The notes beneath the pieces were generated by a model. It worked only from the letters and a program-made list of their open reading frames with translations, ran no database searches and was not told the DNA's origin. A stretch of 41,661 nt of DNA from a virus. The stretch is from positions 1 to 41,661 of IMG/VR virus record IMGVR_UViG_3300024255_000056; one strand, written 5' to 3'. The translations under genes and the position numbers were made by a program. Numbering within the stretch: position 1 is the first letter of the stretch; each line of letters begins with the position of its first letter. Below are positions 384 through 29,416 of the stretch, one piece after another.

Positions 384-2114
384 TTATTTCTTTTTTCCTT
401 TTAATTTAAATCTTGTCATTTTCATTTTGATTTGTGGATCCATAGCACCTTGATACATACTACCGTATACTATCACATCTCTATCACCAGACATCTTATA
501 TGGAGCTTTATTTGGATGGCCTGTTGCAACCGCCTTAACCCTTAAAGAAGTACCTGGATTTAAAAATACGTGATTAGTACCCGTATTATAACCTTCCCAT
601 GTAGATCCTCCATCATTAGATACAAAATAACTTAATGAACACCCTGTAGGAATAAACCAATCAATTGTTTCCCAATAAACTACATTTATTTCTTGACTAT
701 TTTCTAGTGTATAATCACCATATGTTATTGACCAATCTCCTATTAACTCATTTTTATAATCATCACTCCATATTCTAAAACCATAACCATCTGCACCATA
801 ACCAGTATGAATCCACCAAGGTACCCCATTAGTAGAATACATTCTTGTCATATTAGATCCATAATCTACTCTATAGTTTCTTCCTCTACCTAAAGAAGAA
901 CTATCATTAGTCACATCATTATATCTATACAATGCAACAACTCTATCATTATCTTCATCTATCCAACCTGGTATCATTGCTTTACCTCTATCTCCTGTTG
1001 TTGGACAAAAGTCATATCCTGGCATTCTATCTGTTGGTTGTCCTACTGCATCTGATTGGTATTTAGTACCTGCCCTAAATTGAACAGCATAATTGTTACC
1101 AGGTCTTTGTGCTTCTGTATATCTCCTTTTTAATAAAGTTGCCTTTGCTCCACTAAAACATGGTGTTACATCTATCTTAGCTATACTTGAATTTACCCCA
1201 ACCCAGAAAACATTTGGTGCTCCTTTAGGATCTGGTATATACCAACCTTGTTCATAGCCGTCATCACCAAGACCAATATCACCCATGTCACACCATACAA
1301 TTTGTGGTTTAGATGTTGATGCATCAAGTACTAAAGCAAAATTGGCATTGTAAAAATACCCATATAAAACTCTATCATTAACTTCATCATACATCATCCA
1401 ATTTCTATAGCCATTCCTATCCATAGGGGAAGATCCAGGATACATGTTGGCTGCATCATCAGCTTGTATTCTTTCTTCAACACCTGTTTTTAGGTTTCTT
1501 CTCATTATTTTTTTGTAATGATGAGAGTCATGGTCACCTGCATATATCCATTCTCCAGCAGCTACTAAACCACTAAAGTAAGATGAGCCTACTCTATTGA
1601 CATAACCTCCTCCTGTATCTTGAGATCCTATAAAAATTTGAGGGTTGCTGTGAGTTGGTCTAGGATCTTTTACAAATGTTGATCCTCCATTAACAAGACC
1701 GCTATAATCAAATGTAGTATATCCTTCTACATTATATGTCATAGCAACACCTAACTTATTTACTTTATCTATTGCAACTGACGTAATGTGATTATATGTA
1801 GATGATGTATCTCTCCAAAGAAAATTGGAATCATAATATAACCTTGTCATAGTACCATCATCATTTAGTCTACGTACAGCAAAACCATCACCCCAACCAA
1901 CAGTAAATATTAAGTCACCATCTATTTCATAAGAGTTTGTAAAACCTATACACCTATCACCACCATCATATTCACCACTACCGCTAGATACGGTAGTATT
2001 GCTCATACCTCTTTTTTGAACAGGTACAATAGCAACTTGGCCGCCATAATCATTAGCAGCACAACCTATAATCTCTTTTATATCACTTCTATTTAAGTAA
2101 GTTGCTTTAAACAT
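384..2114 (-). CDS. Large beta-rich virion protein, candidate receptor-binding protein
   Basis: A 576-aa protein with no family I can name. It is rich in Gly, Asp, Tyr and Trp with many short strand-like segments of the kind seen in beta-propeller or beta-helix tail proteins (for example AGEWIYAGDHDS near residue 186 and PQIVWCDMGD near 271). A C-terminal module around residues 480-550 contains SYFVSNDGGSTWEGY and a following Gly-Thr-Ser-Leu-Arg turn, like a small beta-sandwich. The last 15 residues are very basic. The ATG at 2114 lies inside the end of a 56-codon upstream ORF. Flanking fibre genes suggest a tail-tip, receptor-binding or muzzle-like structural role; that is inference. Confidence 0.6.
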   Translation of the reverse strand: MFKATYLNRSDIKEIIGCAANDYGGQVAIVPVQKRGMSNTTVSSGSGEYDGGDRCIGFTNSYEIDGDLIFTVGWGDGFAVRRLNDDGTMTRLYYDSNFLWRDTSSTYNHITSVAIDKVNKLGVAMTYNVEGYTTFDYSGLVNGGSTFVKDPRPTHSNPQIFIGSQDTGGGYVNRVGSSYFSGLVAAGEWIYAGDHDSHHYKKIMRRNLKTGVEERIQADDAANMYPGSSPMDRNGYRNWMMYDEVNDRVLYGYFYNANFALVLDASTSKPQIVWCDMGDIGLGDDGYEQGWYIPDPKGAPNVFWVGVNSSIAKIDVTPCFSGAKATLLKRRYTEAQRPGNNYAVQFRAGTKYQSDAVGQPTDRMPGYDFCPTTGDRGKAMIPGWIDEDNDRVVALYRYNDVTNDSSSLGRGRNYRVDYGSNMTRMYSTNGVPWWIHTGYGADGYGFRIWSDDYKNELIGDWSITYGDYTLENSQEINVVYWETIDWFIPTGCSLSYFVSNDGGSTWEGYNTGTNHVFLNPGTSLRVKAVATGHPNKAPYKMSGDRDVIVYGSMYQGAMDPQIKMKMTRFKLKGKKK

Positions 2115-2263
2115 TCTTCTATTTCAAATTTTAATAATTGTATCATTTCATCATTAAACCCATAGCCAGCCTCCATTTGAAATTCTTCTTCAAGTGCAAG
2201 CTCATATTCAGCTAAACAATTTAGCCAATATTCTCTATCTGTTCCTGGTTCCATTTTCTCCAT
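2093..2263 (-). CDS. Small acidic protein between two fibre genes
   Basis: A 56-codon ORF beginning MEKMEPGTDREYWLNCLAEY and ending CLKQLT. It fits the gap between the 522-aa fibre gene (stop 2 bases before this ATG) and the 576-aa gene, whose start it overlaps by 22 bases in another frame. It is acidic and probably helical, with runs of Glu around residues 25-27 and 47-50. The tight packing is the main evidence that it is translated. It could be a fibre chaperone or assembly factor, or serve mainly to couple translation of the next gene. No family recognised. Confidence 0.55.
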   Translation of the reverse strand: MEKMEPGTDREYWLNCLAEYELALEEEFQMEAGYGFNDEMIQLLKFEIEECLKQLT

Positions 2264-2265
2264 AA

Positions 2266-3834
2266 TTATGTTGTTACTACTTCAACCCAAAACTGATGGA
2301 AATTTCTACTCTTTGCAACATTATACATATATGATGCGTTTTGTCCACTATAAACTATTGATGCATTAGATCTTGATAACGCAGCCTGAGTTGCTTGTGA
2401 ATCCATATATATTTCTATATGATCTATAAATCTACTTTCTGGTTTTTCATATTGTACATAATATGCAGTGTTTAAATTAACAACACTCATGTTACCTACA
2501 GTTAATGCACCTACAGTATATGCTTGACTTACCAATGTAGGACTTGAATATACACCTTCTTTAACAGCATACACTCTATATGCCATTGTACCGCCTGTAT
2601 TAAAGGTGGTATCTACAATAGTCATTGTACCAGAAAAATCATCTATTGGTACTTGACCTATAATACCAAAGTCTGCACCATCATCTGATGACCAAACTTG
2701 ATAGTAATCTATATTATTTGTTGATGATTTACCAAAAATAACTTCAATAGTGTCACCTACAATTTTTGTTGATACATTAGTAGGAGCACCTGGTACTGGA
2801 GGTCTATAATTACTTATAGCATTATCTACATATGTCTTACTTGTTGCATCTGTACCAGATGAAACTGTATCTACACCTTGTATACGTCCTGTACCACCAA
2901 GAGTAATATCACCACCTGATACTGTTATATCATTGGCAAAAGTAGAATTACCACTTGTATCATTTATTGTTGTTGTTTTTCTTCCTGCCCATCCACTACT
3001 CCAATTATCAGGAGAAGAGTTAATTTCCAGTCCTGATTCAGCATTTATATAAAGAAATTCATTTGTTTGTCCTGTTGCTACAGAATATGCTTCACCTGCA
3101 TTTAATACAAGTTGTTGTCCACTACCTCTAATATAACCATTAAATGTTGTATTATCTGTAAATGTTTTAACACCACCTATTGATTGTGCTCCTGTGGTTC
3201 TTATAACTGTAGTGTCTAATTGAATAGTACCTGCACCTGTTATAGTTCCACCTGTAATACCATTTGTTGTGGCTATAGAAGTAACACCTGAGCTTGTAAC
3301 ATATCTTCCATCAAGATCAACTGTTACTGCAGTAAGTCCTGATCTATTAAGTGTTAATACACCAGTACTAGTAGAAAAAGATGCAGAACTTAAATAATAG
3401 TTTGTTGTTGTATCCTTAGATATAATCTCAATAGTATCTGTACTTGCATCAGTATTTATTGTAATATTACTACCTGCTTTAAATGTAAGTGTATCATTAT
3501 TATTATCTGCAACAATGTTAGATTGACCAGCTGCTGCAATATTTTTAAATATGTTTTGAGCTGAACCTCTATCAGTATTTGATAAAGTTATTGTTCCACT
3601 TGTTGTTATTGTACCTGTGCCAGATAAACCACTAGAACCCGTAACAGTAACTGAAGTTACAGTACCTGTTCCAGTTCCTGCACCAATGTCTGATAAAAGT
3701 TGTGCTTTAGTTCTGTACTTCAATGCTGAACCATCCCATACTAATATACCAGTATAGCTACTGTTATCATTCCCTATACTAGAGACAGTGCATGATCCGT
3801 TTATTTCAATTGAAGATAAGAAATTTATAGCCAT
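2266..3834 (-). CDS. Tail fibre protein with FN3-like C-terminal domain
   Basis: A 522-aa fibre protein. Its N terminus, MAINFLSSIEING, matches the start of the 768-aa fibre (MAINFLSGLNIDG), so the two probably share a virion attachment module. A shaft follows with GTVTSV-type repeats (about residues 57-90), the module TLNRSGLTAVTVDLDGRY, and an ATSKTYVDNAI motif near 330 that is common in phage fibres. Residues about 345-440 look like a fibronectin type III domain (PGAPTNVSTKIVGDTIEVIF, then YYQVWSSDDG and MAYRVYAVKEG). The last 80 residues form another beta-rich tip. FN3 domains on virions are often linked to weak carbohydrate binding; here that is inference. Confidence 0.8.
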   Translation of the reverse strand: MAINFLSSIEINGSCTVSSIGNDNSSYTGILVWDGSALKYRTKAQLLSDIGAGTGTGTVTSVTVTGSSGLSGTGTITTSGTITLSNTDRGSAQNIFKNIAAAGQSNIVADNNNDTLTFKAGSNITINTDASTDTIEIISKDTTTNYYLSSASFSTSTGVLTLNRSGLTAVTVDLDGRYVTSSGVTSIATTNGITGGTITGAGTIQLDTTVIRTTGAQSIGGVKTFTDNTTFNGYIRGSGQQLVLNAGEAYSVATGQTNEFLYINAESGLEINSSPDNWSSGWAGRKTTTINDTSGNSTFANDITVSGGDITLGGTGRIQGVDTVSSGTDATSKTYVDNAISNYRPPVPGAPTNVSTKIVGDTIEVIFGKSSTNNIDYYQVWSSDDGADFGIIGQVPIDDFSGTMTIVDTTFNTGGTMAYRVYAVKEGVYSSPTLVSQAYTVGALTVGNMSVVNLNTAYYVQYEKPESRFIDHIEIYMDSQATQAALSRSNASIVYSGQNASYMYNVAKSRNFHQFWVEVVTT

Positions 3835-3873
3835 GTCATTTATTCTTTGTTTGCAATATACATATTTTATAAA

Positions 3874-3915
3874 AAAGGGGAAACACTAAACTCTAGATTT
3901 AAATGTCTCCCCTTT
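3874..3915 (-). terminator. Intrinsic terminator after the 768-aa fibre gene
   Basis: Inverted repeat with arms 3874-3885 and 3904-3915. Read as leftward RNA it forms a 12-bp stem containing one G-U pair, followed by a six-T run; read rightward the same position is an A-C mismatch. The strand-specific pairing and T-run support leftward termination 16 bases after the stop of the 768-aa gene, separating it from the next fibre gene. Confidence 0.8.
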
Positions 3916-3930
3916 AAATTCTACTAATTA

Positions 3931-6237
3931 TTATCCTACAAGTTGCATAACAACTGTTATTTCATTAGCAGTTAAGTTACTAGATGTAGTAAATGTTATA
4001 GTTCCTGAAGATTGATCCGCAAAAACATCCATATATACTTGAGTTCCTTTAACACTATAAGTTTGAATAATCCAAGGTCCCTTAGCTAATCCATGAACTG
4101 CTGATGTAATATCAAAAGTATTTGCATTAGCTGCTGGATAAGTACCTGTGTATGATCTTTTAGATTGAGCACTTGCTAATGTTGCTGGAGTTACATATCT
4201 AAATGTATCTGCTCCTGCATCTACTTCAGCTTGTGTTGCAATCTCTGTAACACCAACTGATCCTGTTGCAGCATTAGGTAATGTTCTTTTACTCATTGAT
4301 GTAATAACACCATCAGTAACATTAATCTGATCTACAACGTCTACATTAGCTGTATCAAGATCTACGTCAGTACCAATAATCTTATTGAATGTACTTGCTA
4401 ACATAGCATCTGATATACCACCAGTTTTAACTTCAACCCATCCTGTTGCACTTACATCAAATGTACCAGAATTAAATCCTGCAATACCTTTTGTTGTTCC
4501 ACCGTCAGTTGATCCTGCTGTTGCAACACCTACGTTATTCTGAACAACTGTCCAATCAGATAACGCAGTAGGAGCATCAGACTCAGCAATAATTAAATCA
4601 CCATCTTCAACTGTTTCTGTAAAGAAATCACCAGCTTTAGTTACTGCATACGTCCAACCTTGTTTAATAGAAGCACTTGGATTAGTATCTAAATCAGGTG
4701 TGTTAGTTGATGCATCATATCCACCTTGGAATATTAAAGCTCCAGATCCTGCAAATGTAGAATCTACATAGCTCTTAGATGCAGCATTTGTAGCTATACT
4801 AGGAGTAACTGGTACTACTATATTACTACTAAATGTTTTTGTACCTGCTATTGTTTGAGCACCTGATGTTCTAACAACTGTGCTGTCTACTTCTATATCA
4901 TTGGCATTAGCTGTAATACCATCTCCACCAACAACATTTAATGTTGGATTAACTGTAGAAGTACCAGATTGTGTCATACCATCACCAGCAGTAACAGATG
5001 TTACAGTACCTACATTAGATGTAGCTGTAGTATCAAGCTTCCAAGTTGTACCGGAAATACTTGTTGTTATAAGTGCATTAGATGAAGATAAAGTCAATGA
5101 TCCTGAAGAAGTAATTGCAGTACCTGTTCCTGAATCAGCTGCTGGAGTAATACTTGTTACAGTACCACCTGCATTTGAGTCAGCCGCCCAACCTGGAATA
5201 CCAGATGGACTTACTTTTAATACTTGATCTCTACTACCTATTCCTAATTTTACTAAGCTATTAGTTGCATCAGAATATAAAATATCCCCTTTAGTATAGG
5301 TTGATTGTCCTGTACCTCCTGATACTTCATTTAATGTACCACCTAATGTTAATGTACCAGTAGTAGTAATTGCTCCACCTGTTAGTGTAAGACCTGTTGT
5401 ACCACCTGATCCGTCTACACTTGTTACAGTACCTCCACCTATAGCTGCAGTAAGTTGAGATATGTTAACAAATTTAGCATTGTTATCTGTAGCATCACTT
5501 ACTAAAACTTTATCTGTTGAAGCAACACTTATTAATGTACCATCAGCACCATCTAAAATTATGTTATCAGTTCCTGCATATTGTACAGATATTGTACCTG
5601 ATGCTGTAATAGCACCACCAGTTAAACCAGCTCCAGAATCTACAGAAGTTACTGTACCATCTTTACCAAACCCTGGCATTTTATCAATAGAAGTATGATA
5701 TATATTTTTATCATCTGAAGAAGAAAACCATAAAAAATCTTCTTTTTGAGGAGAAGCAGCAGGTGACGCTAAAATTGCATTATCTGATCCTAAGTAGTCA
5801 ATGTTGACCGTTGGTGTTACAGTTGAAGTACCAGAAATTGATATTCCAGTTCCACCTAATACATCTGTTACTGTACCTAAAGCTGCGTCTGTTGCATTAA
5901 TAGTAATTTCATCATTACCCGTTCTTACAACAGTTACATTTGTCCCTCCTGAAATTTTAATAGGAACATTTGAACCGTCAGTACCTTTTAAGTTAATACT
6001 TGTTGTTCCGGCTGGTACATCTAAAACATATTCAGTATTACCATCTGCACCGGTTGTTAAGTCTACCCAGGCTCCATTATAGAGTCTAAGTTTATTTGTA
6101 GAGTCATCATAATAGATTCTTCCCAGGGATCCTGTAGGAGCTGCACTAAGGTTATCTATTCTGACCTCTTTAATCTGATTAGAGTTTAATTCAATGTTTC
6201 CATCAATATTTAACCCAGAAAGAAAATTTATTGCCAT
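3931..6237 (-). CDS. Large repetitive tail fibre protein
   Basis: A 768-aa fibre protein. The N terminus MAINFLSGLNIDGN is shared with the 522-aa fibre. The shaft has five repeats that begin GTVT(S/D)V or GTVTSI and continue with glycine-rich, S/T-rich strands, near residues 120, 195, 270, 360 and 410. It also contains VSGGTGQSTYTKGDILYSDA (about 304-323) and AASKSYVDSTF (about 484), both familiar phage fibre motifs. The C-terminal 100 residues, after RYVTPATLASAQSKRSY, are a separate beta-rich tip that ends in the hydrophobic stretch EITVVMQLVG. It has its own terminator downstream, suggesting high late expression. A host-contact role is inferred. Confidence 0.85.
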   Translation of the reverse strand: MAINFLSGLNIDGNIELNSNQIKEVRIDNLSAAPTGSLGRIYYDDSTNKLRLYNGAWVDLTTGADGNTEYVLDVPAGTTSINLKGTDGSNVPIKISGGTNVTVVRTGNDEITINATDAALGTVTDVLGGTGISISGTSTVTPTVNIDYLGSDNAILASPAASPQKEDFLWFSSSDDKNIYHTSIDKMPGFGKDGTVTSVDSGAGLTGGAITASGTISVQYAGTDNIILDGADGTLISVASTDKVLVSDATDNNAKFVNISQLTAAIGGGTVTSVDGSGGTTGLTLTGGAITTTGTLTLGGTLNEVSGGTGQSTYTKGDILYSDATNSLVKLGIGSRDQVLKVSPSGIPGWAADSNAGGTVTSITPAADSGTGTAITSSGSLTLSSSNALITTSISGTTWKLDTTATSNVGTVTSVTAGDGMTQSGTSTVNPTLNVVGGDGITANANDIEVDSTVVRTSGAQTIAGTKTFSSNIVVPVTPSIATNAASKSYVDSTFAGSGALIFQGGYDASTNTPDLDTNPSASIKQGWTYAVTKAGDFFTETVEDGDLIIAESDAPTALSDWTVVQNNVGVATAGSTDGGTTKGIAGFNSGTFDVSATGWVEVKTGGISDAMLASTFNKIIGTDVDLDTANVDVVDQINVTDGVITSMSKRTLPNAATGSVGVTEIATQAEVDAGADTFRYVTPATLASAQSKRSYTGTYPAANANTFDITSAVHGLAKGPWIIQTYSVKGTQVYMDVFADQSSGTITFTTSSNLTANEITVVMQLVG

Positions 6238-22657: not shown

Positions 22658-23587
22658 TTATAAACTCATTATCATATCTACAAAGTCAGGTTGAGGAAAA
22701 CAATCCATCTTCCCTTTTCTAACATTGGTATGTGTTAATAGGCCTTTAACCTTTCCATAATAAGCATCAGAATTAAAATCAAATCCTTTTGTAGGACCAT
22801 GCTTTTTTATAAACTGTTTAAGACCAAGTCTTATATCTATCTCATCTCTTTCACCAACATATCTAATCCACTTTTCAGTAGCTTTAATTTGTTCTTCACT
22901 ATACTTATGCCAATATAGTCTGCCTTTAAATGATTCAGGTAATGTAGCTATTTGATTACTCTCACATTCTGACTTTACATATGTTAAATATTTATCATCT
23001 ACTTTTTCTAAATATCCCATATTACATATCTCTAAACCTACTGAATGTCTATTCATAAATCCAGATCCTGTTTTACCTAAATGCCAACCTTGATTTCCTT
23101 CTGCAAAAGCTTGTACCATTACACCATCATATTCATCATCTCCATTTCTATGATTGATACCACCTAAAACAAATTCAGTGGCAATACGTCCTCTAGTGTC
23201 CCTACCCCAATGATCAATACATCTATAAGGGTTTGCATTACCAGCTGTATGATGTAAGAAAATATACTCATTTTGTATAGGTCCTTTTACATATTCTTTT
23301 TCTGGTAAATGATGTCTGTGAATTACTTGATCAAAATTAGTTGTAAAATATTGAGAACTTATATCAGTATCTTCAATAATTTCATCTGGGATTTGGTATT
23401 CAACATTTAATAGTAATGACCACATGCTATTATCTACAACACCAGTGCATGGCAATCCTTTATTAAGTTGATAGTTTTCAACAGCTTTCTCAGTAATAGG
23501 ACCAAAGTGCCCATCTGCTGAGATCTTTAGTTTTGTTTGTAGTGTAACTACATCACTTCCTTTACTACCTAATTTAAGTTGTCTCAT
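22658..23587 (-). CDS. N-acetylmuramoyl-L-alanine amidase with peptidoglycan-binding domain
   Basis: A 309-aa lysis or entry enzyme cutting between the sugar and peptide of peptidoglycan. Residues 1-60 are a PG_binding_1 domain (LKLGSKGSDVVTLQTKLKIS, then DGHFGPITEKAVENYQ). A type 2 amidase domain follows: HHTAG at 112-116, EFVLGG near 138, NRHSVGLEICN near 183, and a final His286 followed by KMDC (293-296), the usual position of the last zinc ligand and catalytic Lys. There is no signal peptide, so export needs a holin (none obvious in the window) or it acts from the virion. It overlaps the 103-aa gene as ATGA. Confidence 0.9.
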   Translation of the reverse strand: MRQLKLGSKGSDVVTLQTKLKISADGHFGPITEKAVENYQLNKGLPCTGVVDNSMWSLLLNVEYQIPDEIIEDTDISSQYFTTNFDQVIHRHHLPEKEYVKGPIQNEYIFLHHTAGNANPYRCIDHWGRDTRGRIATEFVLGGINHRNGDDEYDGVMVQAFAEGNQGWHLGKTGSGFMNRHSVGLEICNMGYLEKVDDKYLTYVKSECESNQIATLPESFKGRLYWHKYSEEQIKATEKWIRYVGERDEIDIRLGLKQFIKKHGPTKGFDFNSDAYYGKVKGLLTHTNVRKGKMDCFPQPDFVDMIMSL

Positions 23588-24930: not shown

Positions 24931-25250
24931 TATTCATGTATTGTTGGGTATGTCTTATTTAATATTACTTGTAATTTTGCACACCTTTCATAATTCTCTT
25001 CATCAATATAGTGGTCAATCATATTTTGTAACTCATCTTCTGATGGCCCATTGTCTGGATCAAATGCCATTACCATTGACTCTTCTCTTTTAAAGTTCTT
25101 ACTAATCAATTCCTCAAATGTAATCTGGCCGGACAGTATCAAGTAGGCATTGTTGTATGCCTTCTCAAGTAATATCTGATCCATCTGCATTTGTGCTATC
25201 CTATCCATTATATCATCTTTTTCTTCAGGTCTGTCATTTTGGTCTGCCAT
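24930..25250 (-). CDS. Acidic helical protein, first gene of the leftward arm
   Basis: A 106-aa acidic protein (MADQNDRPEEKDDIMDRIAQ). The C-terminal helix pair, DELQNMIDHYIDEENYERCA then KLQVILNKTYP, has the outline of a UVR-like or small helical-hairpin motif found in many phage proteins. As the first gene of the arm, and coupled by TAATG to three very basic proteins, it could bind or neutralise them before they reach DNA. That pairing is inference. Confidence 0.5.
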   Translation of the reverse strand: MADQNDRPEEKDDIMDRIAQMQMDQILLEKAYNNAYLILSGQITFEELISKNFKREESMVMAFDPDNGPSEDELQNMIDHYIDEENYERCAKLQVILNKTYPTIHE

Positions 25251-25490
25251 GTGGGAAATAATTTAGTTAGTAACTCTTTTATAAGAATAATATAGGCATT
25301 TTTTAAATTCTATAAAAATTTTTGAGTGAGAACATGCCCCCCGCCTCCTGTAAAAAAAAATTCCTGCCCCCCAAAAAGTTGTGTGTTTTGCATGCTTAAG
25401 AGGTTCTACTGATCTGCTCCCCAGCTACAAAATGTATAAGGGGTACCCCCACACTTAAGTGGGAGCCTCAATAATTTAATACTATATATT
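25251..25490. promoter_or_regulatory. Divergent control region with dyads and C-runs
   Basis: A 240-base gene-free gap where the two arms diverge. It holds two TGCCCCCC runs 30 bases apart (25335-25342, 25365-25372), a perfect palindrome GGGGTACCCC (25440-25449), a perfect palindrome CACTTAAGTG (25452-25461), and another CTTAAG at 25395-25400. C and G runs are out of character in this AT-rich genome. Likely functions are a bidirectional promoter with operators, or an origin. No tRNA-like or coding signal is present. Confidence 0.5.
25412..25446 (+). repeat. Repeat copy 1, ATCTnCTCCCCAGCTA motif
   Basis: The stretch from ATCTGCTCCCCAGCTA to the GGGTAC at 25441-25446 recurs imperfectly at 25937-25969 (ATCTTCTCCCCAGCTA ... 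GGGTAC). The two copies flank the first rightward gene. They could be operators, iterons or remnants of a duplication. Confidence 0.6.
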
Positions 25491-25823
25491 ATGAGCGTAT
25501 TTTTCAGAAAACTAAGAGTAAATGAAGCAACAGGAACAGCAACAATCATTGCTACAGACAAACCAATCTCTGCAACAAAGAAGATGATTGGTAATCTAAA
25601 CGTAGCAGTAAGGTCTACAGGTAATGTAACCTTTGGCATTCTAAGTCTTATAGACCCAGATACCAACAAAGTAATGCGTGCTAATCATCCTACTATTAAG
25701 CAACTTCAAAAAGAGCTTAACCAAGGAGATGAAATGCCTGGCTTCCAATTGAGTGACAATCCTGTAGTGGATTTAAATACAGGAGAGGAAACTAACCTGC
25801 GTTGGATTGAGGCTTCAGTATAG
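25491..25823 (+). CDS. First rightward gene, unknown small protein
   Basis: A 110-aa protein (MSVFFRKLRVNEATGTATII), beta-rich in the first half, with the C-terminal segment MPGFQLSDNPVVDLNTGEET followed by LRWIEASV. I do not recognise a family. It forms a unit of its own: the dyad-rich control region precedes it and a 12-bp terminator follows. That suggests strong early expression, as for an anti-defence or DNA-binding early protein, but nothing in the sequence fixes the role. Confidence 0.65.
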   Translation: MSVFFRKLRVNEATGTATIIATDKPISATKKMIGNLNVAVRSTGNVTFGILSLIDPDTNKVMRANHPTIKQLQKELNQGDEMPGFQLSDNPVVDLNTGEETNLRWIEASV

Positions 25824-25831
25824 CCTTACAT

Positions 25832-25861
25832 CAACAACTGACCTTAACGGGTTGGTTGTTG
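25832..25861 (+). terminator. Intrinsic terminator after the first rightward gene
   Basis: Arms 25832-25843 and 25850-25861 form a 12-bp stem with two G-U pairs and the loop ttaacg, followed by TTTT. It ends the 110-aa transcript 8 bases past the stop codon. Confidence 0.8.
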
Positions 25862-25936
25862 TTTTATCTTGTGTGTAATAGTGCATGGTTACTGCAATCT
25901 TCTCTGACTATCTGCTCTGCCATCTGCACTTTGACC

Positions 25937-25969
25937 ATCTTCTCCCCAGCTATACAGCGTTATGGGTAC
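25937..25969 (+). repeat. Repeat copy 2, ATCTnCTCCCCAGCTA motif
   Basis: Imperfect direct copy of 25412-25446, sharing CTCCCCAGCTA and a GGGTAC end. Its 3' end overlaps the left arm of the 9-bp dyad at 25967-25997. Upstream are two further ATCTGC words (around 25909 and 25922). Confidence 0.6.
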
Positions 25970-25997
25970 AATGTTATATAATATCACTAACATTGTA
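25967..25997. promoter_or_regulatory. Perfect 9-bp inverted repeat, operator-like
   Basis: TACAATGTT (25967-25975) and AACATTGTA (25989-25997) are exact reverse complements separated by 13 AT-rich bases. No T-run follows on either strand, so it is not an intrinsic terminator. It could bind a dimeric regulator such as the phage helix-turn-helix proteins. Confidence 0.5.
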
Positions 25998-26314
25998 TAA
26001 AAAGCATGGGTAAATTTAATTTTATGTGTGTGTCACACTAAAGATGAGGTCTTATACCCACAAAATACCACCTTTTACCACTACTGTTACAACTAGTACT
26101 CTATATAATATAAATATAGCTAACACTACTATAGCCGTAACAATTACACTCAACAATACTACAAGAGTATTCTTTGTCTCTTCCTCTATAGGATAATAGA
26201 CATAGTACCCGCAATATTATAATCAAAAGCTTAGAGATATGAGTCAAGCAATACCACTGACTATTCTGAGATAGTGTCAGCCAATAATGGATAAGCACTC
26301 TAAGTTATTTACTA

Positions 26315-26556
26315 ATCACTAATACTAAATCGTTATGTCTAATACTAAAACAATGCTTGTAACTATAACAGTATTTATAATCACATTACTATGTCTTAAT
26401 ACTATAGTTTGGTGGTTAGAATCTAATATTACATACAAACAATCATTCTCTCATGGTGCATTCTTATTCCTTACTCTATTTGTAGGATGGATACCGGCTG
26501 TAATAGTTGGTAAAGATTACCATGAATATATTAATTAATCCTAATACTAAATCTTA
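26315..26556 (+). repeat. Repeated pre-start motif CTAATACTAAA
   Basis: CTAATACTAAATC occurs just before the ATG at 26335 and again just before the ATG at 26556, while CTAATACTAAAA also occurs inside the first codons at 26335. The recurrence immediately ahead of two start codons suggests a shared translation-initiation or regulatory element, or local duplication. Confidence 0.45.
26335..26538 (+). CDS. Small two-pass membrane protein
   Basis: A 67-aa protein with two predicted membrane helices: about residues 6-27 (TMLVTITVFIITLLCLNTIV) and 41-59 (GAFLFLTLFVGWIPAVIVG), joined by a polar loop SNITYKQSFSH. The short N terminus and C terminus (KDYHEYIN) are probably both cytoplasmic. It opens a three-gene envelope cassette with the lipoprotein and a second membrane protein. 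Possible roles are superinfection exclusion, inner-membrane modification or a holin-like function. The early-arm position fits exclusion better than lysis. Confidence 0.6.
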   Translation: MSNTKTMLVTITVFIITLLCLNTIVWWLESNITYKQSFSHGAFLFLTLFVGWIPAVIVGKDYHEYIN

Positions 26557-26957
26557 TGAAACACATTATCATATGCCTAGGCATTCTCCTATCATTTAGC
26601 TCTTGTGAAAAAGAAGAGTTAGAACCAACATGTACAGCTATAGAGCTCAACATGACTGATACAATAACTATGTACTTTGAAAGACAAGAGTCTAATGGTA
26701 CATTTAGATCACATGGATGGTCTCAAGATAACTATCAGTTATACCTTGATACATTTATGGCAACAACACCTCCACCATTTACTATGGATGGTTGGTTGTC
26801 TTGGTCATTTGACTCAGCCAATAGCAATCCAGACTATTATATATTCAGTAGTGGACAGTATCTTATTAACCCAAGCACTTGGGATGATGACTTCTACTAT
26901 ATCACAATACCAATTCAAGATATTGTTACCAATGGTGACACTATCGTAATCCTTTAA
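26556..26957 (+). CDS. Lipoprotein, probably surface-exposed
   Basis: A 133-aa protein with a type II signal peptide: MKHIIICLGILLSFSSC, with Cys17 as the lipidated residue. The next residues EKEELE form the K-(D/E)-(D/E)-type lipoprotein export signal known from Bacteroidota, which sends lipoproteins to the outside of the outer membrane. The mature part is about 116 aa, beta-rich and full of Asp, Tyr and Trp (SWSFDSANSNPDYYIF, then DDFYYITIPIQDIV). A phage surface lipoprotein encoded away from the virion genes resembles receptor-blocking exclusion proteins such as T5 Llp. That function is inference; the export signal is visible. Confidence 0.7.
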   Translation: MKHIIICLGILLSFSSCEKEELEPTCTAIELNMTDTITMYFERQESNGTFRSHGWSQDNYQLYLDTFMATTPPPFTMDGWLSWSFDSANSNPDYYIFSSGQYLINPSTWDDDFYYITIPIQDIVTNGDTIVIL

Positions 26958-26976
26958 TCTTTTAAAATAAATAATT

Positions 26977-27303
26977 ATGAAAACATTCTTCAGATCATTA
27001 ATCAAATGGATATTTATTATCATTATCCCAGTAGTAGTATTAAGTACATGTATCAACTATTTTTACACCTTTGGGTGGAATGGTTGGTCAATGACCCTCA
27101 TATGGAGTGCAGTGGTAGTTGCAACTCTTATTAATGCTTTGTTCTATGCTTCTAATATGAAGCAATCAAAGTTCTTACCATTTAAAATACAGTTTGAGTT
27201 TATCCCTATGTTTGGCTTCTTAATAGGAGTACCACCAAAAAGACCATGGGAAATACTTATAGTTGTACCTTTTTGTACTATAGAAATATCAAAAAGGGTT
27301 TAA
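26977..27303 (+). CDS. Membrane protein with two or three helices
   Basis: A 108-aa protein. A basic start (MKTFFRSLIKW) is followed by a hydrophobic helix IFIIIIPVVVLSTCINYFY (about residues 12-30), a second at about 37-56 (SMTLIWSAVVVATLINALFY), and weaker hydrophobic segments near 75-85 and 92-102. It has no catalytic motif. It closes the cassette after the lipoprotein. Possible roles match those of its neighbours; none can be fixed. Confidence 0.6.
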   Translation: MKTFFRSLIKWIFIIIIPVVVLSTCINYFYTFGWNGWSMTLIWSAVVVATLINALFYASNMKQSKFLPFKIQFEFIPMFGFLIGVPPKRPWEILIVVPFCTIEISKRV

Positions 27304-27389
27304 AAAGGCTCACGTATGGACCACTAACAATACCAGTAATATTATATACTATAATAACACTAGTAGTTAGGTCTTGTGAGATTTGTTGA
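27273..27389 (+). CDS. Possible 38-aa membrane micro-ORF or frameshift extension
   Basis: A TTG-start frame overlapping the end of the 108-aa gene in the -1 frame. It reads YYRNIKKGLKRLTYGPLTIP and then a hydrophobic helix VILYTIITLVV before a Cys-containing tail. It could be an independent micro-protein, or a -1 frameshift extension of the 108-aa protein near the AAAAAGG run. No ATG is present, so confidence is low. Confidence 0.25.
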   Translation: MYYRNIKKGLKRLTYGPLTIPVILYTIITLVVRSCEIC

Positions 27390-27403
27390 TTGTGTAATCA
27401 ATT

Positions 27404-27455
27404 TTCAGGAGCCATGCTGTTTTCGCATACATGTTTGCAGTGTGGCTCTCCTGAA
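27404..27455 (+). ncRNA. Long imperfect hairpin, structured RNA candidate
   Basis: Bases 27404-27419 pair with 27438-27455. There are 7 bp (TTCAGGA/TCCTGAA), a 2-base bulge, 4 bp (GCCA/TGGC), two wobbles and 3 further bp, closing a loop of about 18 bases. No T-run follows (the next bases are TTAATCTAAAAAA), so it is not a standard terminator. It stands 25 bases ahead of the first replication-arm gene, suggesting a leader, an RNase III site or a small RNA. Confidence 0.45.
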
Positions 27456-27479
27456 TTAATCTAAAAAATATTAAAACAT

Positions 27480-28004
27480 ATGTCAAATACATATTCCATC
27501 CATAAAGAAATAATTAATACCATCTTTATAAAGCTATTAGATAGCAAAGCATTTGTAACAAAGGAAAACATGACCAATGTTGGTAAGATCTTGCTTAGAG
27601 AGTGTAGTGATAGTACTATAGAAACCATTATCCATCTCATGTTAAGTGAAACAGAATATAAACCTCTTAAAATAGGTGATCATGTTAAGCTTGAAACACC
27701 AAATTATCACATAGGTAATGAATATGAAGTAGATATACTTGCTGACTTAGGTCTATTACCTAAAGATAAAGGTTATGTCTATGGTATTGTTAAAGGTGAC
27801 TCTTCTTGGAGCACAACAGATCCTTTTAATCCGTTCTATAGTAGAATTAAGATTGATTGTTTGTATCATTGTGCTGACAAAAAGCTTAAATTATATCAGC
27901 ATGAAGTAAATCCTTTACAATGTGTGAAGGTTAATAGAGGTAATATTCCTTATTACAAAAAGAAAACAGCTTCTGTTGAGGTTGTGGACCCAATAACTTT
28001 ATAA
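27480..28004 (+). CDS. Early-arm protein, unknown
   Basis: A 174-aa protein. The N-terminal helical domain (SIHKEIINTIFIKLLDSKAF) is followed from about residue 60 by a beta-rich region: PLKIGDHVKLETPNYHIGNE, GYVYGIVKGDSSWS, and IKIDCLYHCADKKLKLYQHE. The KIGDHVKL...YVYGIV arrangement resembles a small beta-barrel. It opens the replication arm directly after the long hairpin. No family recognised. Confidence 0.55.
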   Translation: MSNTYSIHKEIINTIFIKLLDSKAFVTKENMTNVGKILLRECSDSTIETIIHLMLSETEYKPLKIGDHVKLETPNYHIGNEYEVDILADLGLLPKDKGYVYGIVKGDSSWSTTDPFNPFYSRIKIDCLYHCADKKLKLYQHEVNPLQCVKVNRGNIPYYKKKTASVEVVDPITL

Positions 28005-28005
28005 T

Positions 28006-28194
28006 ATGCCTAAATTATCAATAGAATTAATCAAAGACAGGTACAGAAAGTTCCAGACTCAAAGTGAACATAAACACTTTGGTCCTTATATGAATGAGCT
28101 ATTCTCACTAGGTGATGTTAAGCTACAAGGAGAGTTAGACAATAACATGTCTCTTCTTAGGTTGCTTAAAGATCATGTACAAGAAGAGCAGTAG
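28006..28194 (+). CDS. Small hypothetical protein coupled to the HTH gene
   Basis: A 62-aa charged, helical protein (MPKLSIELIKDRYRKFQTQS, then LQGELDNNMSLLRLLKDHVQ). It starts 1 base after the upstream stop and overlaps the helix-turn-helix gene by 20 bases. Its close packing supports expression. It might act with that DNA-binding protein. Confidence 0.5.
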   Translation: MPKLSIELIKDRYRKFQTQSEHKHFGPYMNELFSLGDVKLQGELDNNMSLLRLLKDHVQEEQ

Positions 28195-28426
28195 ATATGG
28201 AATTGTTAAACACCAAGTGTTAACAGATCCTAATCTATCCATTCAAGCAAAAGGTTTGTATAGTATATTATGTTGCTATGCAAACAAAAACAGATTATGT
28301 TGGCCATCTATCAGTACACTTGCTGATGATGCTGACTCAAGTCAATCATCCATTAAAAGATGGTTAAAAGAGTTAAAACACCATAATTACATTCAAAGAG
28401 TAGGAAGAAAGCTAACAATTTTGTAA
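28175..28426 (+). CDS. Helix-turn-helix DNA-binding protein (HTH_36-like)
   Basis: An 83-aa protein following the replication-initiator-type winged helix: YGIVKHQVLTDPNLSIQAKG, then LYSILCCYANKNRLCWPSIS with the turn TLADDADSSQSSIKRWLKEL and a wing YIQRVGRKL. This is the HTH_36 type found at the N terminus of plasmid and phage replication proteins, but no further domain follows. It could be a truncated initiator or a stand-alone regulator of the early arm. Confidence 0.75.
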   Translation: MYKKSSRYGIVKHQVLTDPNLSIQAKGLYSILCCYANKNRLCWPSISTLADDADSSQSSIKRWLKELKHHNYIQRVGRKLTIL

Positions 28427-28442
28427 TGCGTTAGCTATATTA

Positions 28443-28526
28443 ATGCTTTTTATTTTTGAGTTAGAACCAAATTCATTTAATTATACTGAACCAGTACAAG
28501 TTATATTATTATCTTTACCACAATAA
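28443..28526 (+). CDS. Possible 27-codon micro-ORF
   Basis: ATG at 28443, ending 8 bases before the next gene; it reads MLFIFELEPNSFNYTEPVQV and then ILLSLPQ. The only support is its position in the gap between two genes. Confidence 0.2.
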   Translation: MLFIFELEPNSFNYTEPVQVILLSLPQ

Positions 28527-28534
28527 AATAAAGA

Positions 28535-28804
28535 ATGATAATACAACTTCCAAATGGCAGAATAATTGAGTGTTCATTAGAACAGTACCTTTCACTAAGT
28601 GATGAAGAGTACAATGATCTAAATGGTCTTAGCTCAGCCTATACTAAAGAAGTTGGTGATCCATTTTACAACAGGTATTCAGACAGATCAGGGAAAGCAG
28701 AACAATCCGCAATAGAACATATTGAGGAACATGAACCAGCCCTAGATGAGATAGATACCTATGAGAAGTTGGAGGACCCGTATTTTCATTCAGATGATTC
28801 TTAA
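28535..28804 (+). CDS. Small acidic protein
   Basis: An 89-aa protein. The N-terminal part, MIIQLPNGRIIECSLEQYLS, looks like a small beta hairpin, followed by SDEEYNDLNGLSSAYTKEVG. The C-terminal third is very acidic (EHIEEHEPALDEIDTYEKLE). No family recognised. It precedes the acidic-tailed 189-aa protein and may share its promoter. Confidence 0.5.
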   Translation: MIIQLPNGRIIECSLEQYLSLSDEEYNDLNGLSSAYTKEVGDPFYNRYSDRSGKAEQSAIEHIEEHEPALDEIDTYEKLEDPYFHSDDS

Positions 28805-28846
28805 ATCATCAAACACTATTTTATTAATTTCAAAAACAATTTAAAA

Positions 28847-29416
28847 ATGCAAAATCAAGTAAACATCATTGCTGATGACATGGGAAATGTTGTCCGCCAA
28901 TCAAGTAGTAACTCAGAGTATGGTTATGTAAGACTAACACAGAAAAGAGTATCCTTTGGAACCGGAGGTTGGGTTAAAAGCTCTAACGTCTCTACATTAA
29001 TCCATGGTAAATTAGAAGATTTACAAGAAATGGATTTCAAAGCTAATGAAGCTTTAACAGGTAAGATTGTAATCAGAGAGCAATTAGAGCCATTTAGTTC
29101 TAATGATCCTGATAGAGACTATAAATATGCAGGTGATACAGGTATCATTTGTTGTATAGATGGTCAACCTATTTATAGGAAAACATTCTTTGTACCAAAT
29201 GTAACAGCTGAAGATACATTATTAGCTCATACTAATGGTGCTGATATAAGAGAAGCTAATGGTAGCAACACAAGTGTCAAAATGAAGACAATTGAAGCTG
29301 CAGAAGCATTTGGTATCAATAGTGACGTAGAAGATGAATCCGTTGAAGAAGTTGCTGATGAAGTAACTGATGAAGTAGTTGAAGATGAGCTCGTTGAAGA
29401 GACATTTGAACTATAA
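28847..29416 (+). CDS. Acidic-tailed early protein, possible ssDNA-binding protein
   Basis: A 189-aa protein. The first 140 residues are beta-rich (EYGYVRLTQKRVSFGTGGWV, then LEDLQEMDFKANEALTGKIV and GDTGIICCIDGQPIYRKTFF), which could form an OB-like barrel. The last 35 residues are almost all acidic, ending EVVEDELVEETFEL, as in SSB tails that recruit partners. A strong terminator follows, consistent with an abundant product. I have seen similar proteins in Bacteroidota phages, always uncharacterised. SSB is the best guess but not shown. Confidence 0.5.
   Translation: MQNQVNIIADDMGNVVRQSSSNSEYGYVRLTQKRVSFGTGGWVKSSNVSTLIHGKLEDLQEMDFKANEALTGKIVIREQLEPFSSNDPDRDYKYAGDTGIICCIDGQPIYRKTFFVPNVTAEDTLLAHTNGADIREANGSNTSVKMKTIEAAEAFGINSDVEDESVEEVADEVTDEVVEDELVEETFEL

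What the first reader, a model, noticed from the sequence alone, without database searches (positions are those of the whole stretch)
26556..26957. Phage-encoded lipoprotein with a Bacteroidota surface-export signal
The signal peptide ends in FSSC and is followed at once by EKEELE, the pattern of the lipoprotein export signal that takes lipoproteins to the outer face in Bacteroidota. Early-arm genes for surface lipoproteins in other phages block receptors or exclude competitors (T5 Llp). I know of few described examples for Bacteroidota phages.
Basis: partly seen in the sequence, partly recalled or inferred. Interest (0 to 1): 0.6.

Follow-up and report, generated by a model that had tools for sequence, protein, structure and literature searches.

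The report
Phage surface lipoprotein with swappable ectodomain
A marine phage related to crAss phages carries a gene for a lipoprotein that bears the tag Bacteroidota use to send lipoproteins to the outside of the cell; across related phages the tag is kept while the part behind it is diverged or swapped, which suggests that infected cells display a tailor-made blocker, perhaps to shut out rival phages.

Summary
ORF 26556-26957 (+) encodes 133 aa, MKHIIICLGILLSFSS|CEKEELEP.... It meets the PROSITE lipobox rule and is the only such ORF of 40 aa or more in the window. CEKEEL matches C-X-K-(D/E)2-X, the optimal lipoprotein export signal (LES) measured in Capnocytophaga. A family scan found 32 distinct slot lipoproteins in related phages, next to a 108-aa membrane protein, in the replication arm. 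All have K/Q at +3 and E at +4; nearly half have the exact LES (xKEEL), the rest a variant (E[KQ]E[PS]). A separate small basic lipoprotein family from the same island has no acidic residue at +2 to +6 (0/33). The new finding is mosaicism: signal peptide and LES stay while the ectodomain diverges or is exchanged, with a crossover inside the LES (Fisher p = 2e-37). The ectodomain evolves fastest in its neighbourhood. It folds alone (AlphaFold, pLDDT about 80-90) with no match in PDB or BFVD. Receptor masking or superinfection exclusion remains an inference. The cited model, T5 Llp, is periplasmic and sits beside the receptor-binding-protein gene, so it is an imperfect analogue. No homology to Cor or Llp survives removal of the signal peptide.

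The parts
26556..26957 (+). LES lipoprotein, 133 aa (family LIP)
26556..26603 (+). type II signal peptide, residues 1-16, lipobox S-F-S-S|C
   Evidence: PROSITE-type rule
26604..26606 (+). lipid-acceptor Cys17 (+1)
   Evidence: invariant in 32/32 distinct slot proteins
26607..26624 (+). lipoprotein export signal EKEELE (+2 to +7); crossover between the L088-type and window-type genes lies within the homologous LES of L004
   Evidence: match to C-X-K-(D/E)2-X; conservation and breakpoint
26625..26657 (+). flexible tether (low pLDDT to about residue 28)
26658..26954 (+). folded alpha+beta ectodomain, diverged or exchanged between phages
   Evidence: AlphaFold pLDDT about 80-90 for most of residues 31-133; mosaic and dN/dS
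26335..26538 (+). 67-aa protein with two predicted TM segments, variable small gene of the slot (also in L023)
26977..27303 (+). 108-aa membrane protein (MEM), two predicted TM segments, conserved anchor directly downstream of the lipoprotein
25491..25823 (+). 110-aa conserved gene (FRKL), left border of the variable slot, followed by its own terminator-like hairpin
25832..25861 (+). terminator-like hairpin upstream of the slot
26187..26209 (+). conserved noncoding element TATAGGATAATAGACATAGTACC, candidate promoter or recombination anchor at the head of the slot
   Evidence: exact, once each, in 56 of 126 fetched loci (loci overlap); 36-44 bp before the lipoprotein ATG in L002, L004, L005, L088
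27404..27455 (+). stable hairpin after MEM, likely end of the transcription unit (no long T run)
   Evidence: MFE z = -3.87 for 27380-27480
27480..28004 (+). 174-aa conserved gene (P174), right border of the slot
28175..28426 (+). winged-helix replication initiator-like protein, shows that the arm is the replication arm
   Evidence: PHROG 428, E 8e-17
22658..23587 (-). endolysin in the opposite (late) arm; argues against a lysis cassette at the lipoprotein

Best explanation
It is an accessory, presumably early-expressed phage lipoprotein that host machinery acylates and exports to the outer face of the outer membrane by means of its LES. There its small, tethered, negatively charged ectodomain most likely binds or covers a specific surface structure (receptor, TonB-dependent transporter or glycan) and so protects the infected cell from further phages, that is, superinfection exclusion from the outside. 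The address tag is conserved because delivery must not fail. The ectodomain is diverged or exchanged because each phage lineage must match a different receptor or competitor. Shown by sequence: lipobox, LES match and conservation, location, mosaicism, fast ectodomain evolution. Inferred: lipidation, surface display, early expression, receptor binding, exclusion.
For: Exact LES match to the experimentally defined optimum. E at +4 in 32/32 and K/Q at +3 in 32/32 distinct slot proteins. In type I all of K+3 E+4 E+5 L+6 E+7 are invariant over 8 distinct N-termini although much of the signal peptide and +8 vary. Control from the same island: the small basic lipoproteins have 0/33 with any D/E at +2 to +6. 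Mosaicism: L088 vs L006/L054 are nearly identical (100% in the 60-nt bin) over signal+LES DNA, then 35-45% in the ectodomain; window vs L004 ectodomain has dS 0.31 and 85% aa identity, while flanking MEM (32% aa) and P174 (47%) have dS of 1.45 or more and FRKL and A89 about 1.1; informative-site switch 61:2 to 15:143, p = 2e-37. The ectodomain has the highest dN/dS of six compared segments (median 0.38 vs 0.12-0.26; 0.50-0.77 in L096/L101/L104). The model gives a folded domain on a disordered tether. Slot adjacent to a small two-TM protein, in the replication arm, accessory: present in 30 of 45 nonredundant loci. Precedent for small phage lipoproteins that block receptors: Llp, Cor, Rtp45; surface structures including lipoproteins of Bacteroides have been implicated in changing phage susceptibility.
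Against: No experiment on this family. The two exclusion lipoproteins with solved structures in the papers read are periplasmic and small, so the mechanism would have to differ. More than half of the family has E-[KQ]-E-[PS], not K-(D/E)2; in Capnocytophaga one acidic residue after K was not enough. No dN/dS above 1. No sequence or fold relative of known function. Covariation with tail fibres could not be tested.
Confidence: 0.5

Rival explanations
1. The protein is a surface lipoprotein, but serves another surface task: adhesion or aggregation of infected cells, blocking of contact-dependent toxins or predators, or capture of a nutrient for a TonB-dependent transporter.
For: LES, tethered ectodomain and diversification fit any surface conflict or ligand-binding role.
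Against: No domain of known adhesin, inhibitor or transporter partner found.
Confidence: 0.25
2. It is a periplasm-facing outer-membrane lipoprotein that acts like T5 Llp or Rtp45 by changing a receptor from inside, and the acidic N-terminus is not a working LES in this host.
For: The known exclusion lipoproteins with solved structures work this way; type II members lack K-(D/E)2.
Against: Window and type I members match the LES exactly and hold it while the rest varies; the small lipoproteins of the same island lack acidic residues there; mature part (117 aa) longer than the whole 78-position Cor profile.
Confidence: 0.15
3. It is a lysis protein (outer-membrane spanin or unimolecular spanin).
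For: Phage lipoprotein next to a small membrane protein; endolysin present in the genome.
Against: Located in the opposite arm from the endolysin; no C-terminal TM seen, so no u-spanin; neighbour has two TM segments and no single-TM plus coiled-coil plan; globular domain predicted; 15 of 45 nonredundant loci lack it.
Confidence: 0.05
4. It is a virion protein or a decaying host gene picked up by chance.
For: None found.
Against: In every relative with the gene that was examined it sits upstream of MEM, outside structural operons; no relative among one genome each of 84,980 bacterial and archaeal species by pattern search; purifying selection.
Confidence: 0.03

Closest known systems
Bacteroidota LES surface lipoproteins (Capnocytophaga canimorsus, C-X-K-(D/E)2-X; PMC5080379)
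   Same: Lipobox followed by K-E-E at +3 to +5; tethered domain
   Different: Encoded by a phage; ectodomain unrelated to any known family; more than half of the phage family uses a variant E-[KQ]-E-[PS]
T5 Llp, phi80/T1 Cor, Rtp45 superinfection-exclusion lipoproteins
   Same: Small phage-encoded lipoprotein, plausible receptor target
   Different: Llp and Rtp45 are smaller and periplasmic, and llp lies beside the receptor-binding-protein gene; no homology of the mature part; here an LES predicts the outer face and the ectodomain is about 100 residues
Phase-variable host lipoproteins that alter phage susceptibility in Bacteroides (Porter et al. 2020, as cited in PMC8375218)
   Same: Surface lipoproteins implicated in phage susceptibility in Bacteroidota
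   Different: Host genes switched by phase variation; here a phage gene diversified by recombination between phages
Flavobacterium phage Fpv3 gp73 (168 aa, CSTDEA...)
   Same: Lipobox, acidic residues after the Cys, in the non-structural arm that carries the replication genes of a cultured flavophage
   Different: Different mature sequence; S-T-D-E type signal; found only in FpV4/Fpv3-type phages

Membership tests
Bacteroidota LES lipoprotein | Signal peptidase II lipobox with N-terminal Cys | tested here: met
   PROSITE-type rule, only such ORF in window
Bacteroidota LES lipoprotein | C-X-K-(D/E)2-X after the Cys | tested here: met
   CEKEEL; exact in 14 of 32 distinct family members, E-[KQ]-E-[PS] variant in 18
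Bacteroidota LES lipoprotein | Made in a Bacteroidota cell | tested here: inconclusive
   No SD in 47 genes and A at -3; portal matches mostly to Bacteroidota phages; best portal and capsid match is a Leptolyngbya phage; no host genome found
Bacteroidota LES lipoprotein | Exposed at the cell surface | not testable with these tools
   needs labelling of cells
Cor/Llp superinfection-exclusion lipoproteins | Sequence relation of the mature part | tested here: not met
   PHROG 1119 hit covers residues 1-38 and vanishes without the signal peptide; NCBIfam Cor 14.9 bits vs cut-off 31
Cor/Llp superinfection-exclusion lipoproteins | Small and periplasm-facing (Rtp45 about 6 kDa) | tested here: not met
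   117-aa mature part with a predicted surface signal; location itself not measured; periplasmic location of Llp and Rtp45
Cor/Llp superinfection-exclusion lipoproteins | Gene beside the receptor-binding-protein gene (as llp beside pb5) | tested here: not met
   slot is in the replication arm; tail-fibre-like genes are at 384-6237
Cor/Llp superinfection-exclusion lipoproteins | Blocks infection | not testable with these tools
   needs an assay
Spanins | o-spanin paired with single-TM coiled-coil i-spanin, or u-spanin with C-terminal TM, by the lysis genes | tested here: not met
   two-TM neighbour, no C-terminal TM, endolysin in other arm
crAss-like phages (sensu lato) | crAss-type portal, terminase, major capsid protein | tested here: met
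   PHROG 6547 (7e-86), 6681 (1e-61), 11589 (9e-30) and crAss, Cellulophaga and Flavobacterium phage portal matches

The most novel reading that the evidence does not exclude
A group of environmental crAss-like phages re-decorates the outer face of infected Bacteroidota cells with a modular lipoprotein: a fixed LES address plus an exchangeable ectodomain that spreads between phages by recombination within the LES. This would be an outside-in superinfection-exclusion system, opposite in topology to Llp and Rtp45, possibly paired with a second, basic, LES-free lipoprotein that stays on the periplasmic side.
Probability: 0.42. Interest if true: 0.78.

Novelty: new variant of a known kind. Interest (0 to 1): 0.6.

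Why it matters
Little seems to be known of how Bacteroidota phages keep rivals out, although they are abundant in gut and sea; paper searches for phage lipoproteins with an LES found nothing relevant. If true, phages use the host's still poorly understood LES pathway, surface display becomes a phage strategy, and the exchanged ectodomains form a ready set of binders that could point to the unknown receptors of these phages.

Tried and rejected
Homology to Cor: the weak PHROG hit (E 0.003 for the window protein, best 1e-4 in L047) is not found without the signal peptide. First AlphaFold run with 10 sequences was poor (pLDDT 53) and was replaced by one with 24 (pLDDT 75). Foldseek on PDB and BFVD and VIA-align: nothing significant (best Z 3.0), which does not show that the fold is new. 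Pfam, NCBIfam, PADLOC, PDB sequences: only sub-threshold or spurious hits. Cellular relatives: none by pattern in genome contigs. Host by UDG relatives: only a phage-like contig (114,697 bp) in a 'Pseudomonadales' MAG, judged mis-binned. Background rate of LES in host lipoproteomes could not be drawn because the tool gives no relatives for virus records; the small lipoproteins served as the internal control. Test for transfer of the ectodomain together with tail fibres: contigs too incomplete. A small minus-strand ORF at the conserved upstream element is not open in all loci. Rfam: no match in 25000-29000.

Full report
WHAT IS THERE. The ORF at 26556-26957 (+) is real and encodes MKHIIICLGILLSFSS|CEKEELEPTC.... 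It meets the PROSITE lipobox rule and is the only such ORF of at least 40 aa in the window; shuffled windows give 0.15 per window, none of 100 aa or more and none with the export motif. SignalP could not be run. The window is a 41,661-bp virus record with crAss-type portal, terminase and capsid genes on the minus strand and replication genes on the plus strand. Portal relatives include crAss phages and Cellulophaga and Flavobacterium phages; the single best portal and capsid match in the phage collection is a Leptolyngbya phage. None of 47 genes has a Shine-Dalgarno-like site and A is favoured at -3, as in Bacteroidota (PMC6847099). A Bacteroidota host is therefore likely, not proven.

THE EXPORT SIGNAL. 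In Capnocytophaga canimorsus the optimal lipoprotein export signal is C-X-K-(D/E)2-X (PMC5080379). CEKEEL fits exactly. To see whether this is maintained I collected relatives from IMG/VR and then, with a conserved 89-aa neighbour as anchor, 80 more loci, partly the same contigs. The slot upstream of a conserved two-TM protein (MEM) holds 32 distinct lipoproteins of 119-161 aa. All 32 have K or Q at +3 and E at +4. Position +5 is E in 14 (type I, like the window), P in 17 and S in 1 (type II). In type I the residues K+3 E+4 E+5 L+6 E+7 are invariant over 8 distinct N-termini although much of the signal peptide and position +8 vary. Type II (E-[KQ]-E-[PS]) does not meet the minimal K-(D/E)2, and one acidic residue after K was insufficient in Capnocytophaga, so its export is less certain. 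A separate family of small basic lipoproteins (43-60 aa) lies in the same island in many loci; 33 distinct members have no D or E at +2 to +6, and their mature charge is +4 to +16 against -11 to -19 for the large ones. This is a useful internal control: the acidic tag is a property of the large family, not of phage lipoproteins in general. The window lacks the small family.

THE MOSAIC. L088 and L006/L054 share near-identical DNA from the upstream region through signal peptide and LES (100% in the 60-nt bin that covers them), after which identity falls to 35-45%. Conversely, the window and L004 share the ectodomain (85% aa, dS 0.31) while the genes next to it are far apart (MEM 32% aa, dS 1.72; P174 47% aa, dS 1.45; FRKL and A89 dS about 1.1) and the signal peptides differ. 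L004 thus carries the front of the L088 lineage and the ectodomain of the window lineage. Informative sites switch from 61:2 to 15:143 (Fisher p = 2e-37), and the codons (L004 agrees with L088 at +2 GTC and with the window at +5 GAG) place the switch inside the LES. A further pair, L034/L012, shows the same kind of break after the tag. The ectodomain has the highest dN/dS of the six segments compared (median 0.38; MEM 0.26, P174 and signal+LES 0.17, A89 0.14, FRKL 0.12) and reaches 0.50-0.77 among L096/L101/L104, whose P174 has 0.03-0.06. This is accelerated evolution, not proof of positive selection; several pairs are very close, so single values are noisy.

STRUCTURE AND SURROUNDINGS. With 24 sequences AlphaFold gives pLDDT 75 overall and about 80-90 for most of residues 31-133, with residues 16-28 disordered: an alpha+beta domain on a tether. 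No fold or sequence match of meaning was found. The slot lies between a conserved 110-aa gene with its own terminator-like hairpin and a conserved 174-aa gene, is headed by a conserved 23-nt element and closed by a stable hairpin. The lipoprotein is accessory: 30 of 45 nonredundant loci have it; L023 has an unrelated 94-aa protein without lipobox at that place. No relatives were found in the collection of deposited phages or, by pattern, in bacterial genomes.

FUNCTION. A conserved address with an exchanged, fast-evolving, tethered ectodomain, in an accessory gene of the replication arm, next to a small membrane protein, is what one would expect of a surface-acting exclusion factor that must match a receptor or competitor. 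I put this at 0.5. If the LES works, this protein is their topological opposite. The small basic lipoprotein, which lacks the LES, is closer to Llp, Cor and Rtp45 in size and predicted side. A weak Cor profile hit depends on the signal peptide. A spanin role is unlikely (no C-terminal TM, neighbour not i-spanin-like, endolysin in the other arm). Full-text searches found no description of phage lipoproteins with an LES; that library is incomplete.

LIMITS. IMG/VR loci are fragments and partly redundant; counts of distinct sequences are given where possible. Surface exposure, early expression and function are untested. Statements about spanin architecture rest on general knowledge of those families.

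Noticed in passing
L009 8088-8243, L012 9855-10007, L023 2253-2426, L042 6264-6434 and others: Family of very small basic lipoproteins (33 distinct, ..GGPxLQSCGSSRxCK.. often ending KCWNAKKQKYTRC or KKHKRSKWGR), no acidic residue after the Cys, in many loci just upstream of or overlapping the LES lipoprotein; absent from the window.
   Followed up: partly
window 26187-26209: Noncoding 23-nt element TATAGGATAATAGACATAGTACC is exact, once each, in 56 of 126 fetched loci, at the head of the variable slot; candidate phage promoter or recombination anchor.
   Followed up: partly
L023 (WLWP01000004.1, 114,697 bp): Contig of a 'Pseudomonadales' MAG looks like a nearly complete phage of this group, probably mis-binned.
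   Followed up: partly
Flavobacterium phage Fpv3 (NC_031904) 84227-84733: Lipoprotein gp73 with C-S-T-D-E start in the non-structural arm of a cultured F. psychrophilum phage; possible laboratory model of the same idea.
   Followed up: partly
window 27404-27455: Very stable hairpin (region z = -3.87) between the membrane protein and the 174-aa gene, without a long T run.
   Followed up: no
window 384-6237 (-): Three long proteins (576, 522, 768 aa), two of them rich in GTVTSV..G..LTGGAITTTGTL repeats, look like tail-fibre or appendage proteins; they score nothing in PHROGs at E 0.01.
   Followed up: no
H21/H41, PP438436.1: Leptolyngbya phage Lbo-JY46 is the closest deposited relative by portal and capsid protein, odd for a group otherwise linked to Bacteroidota.
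   Followed up: no
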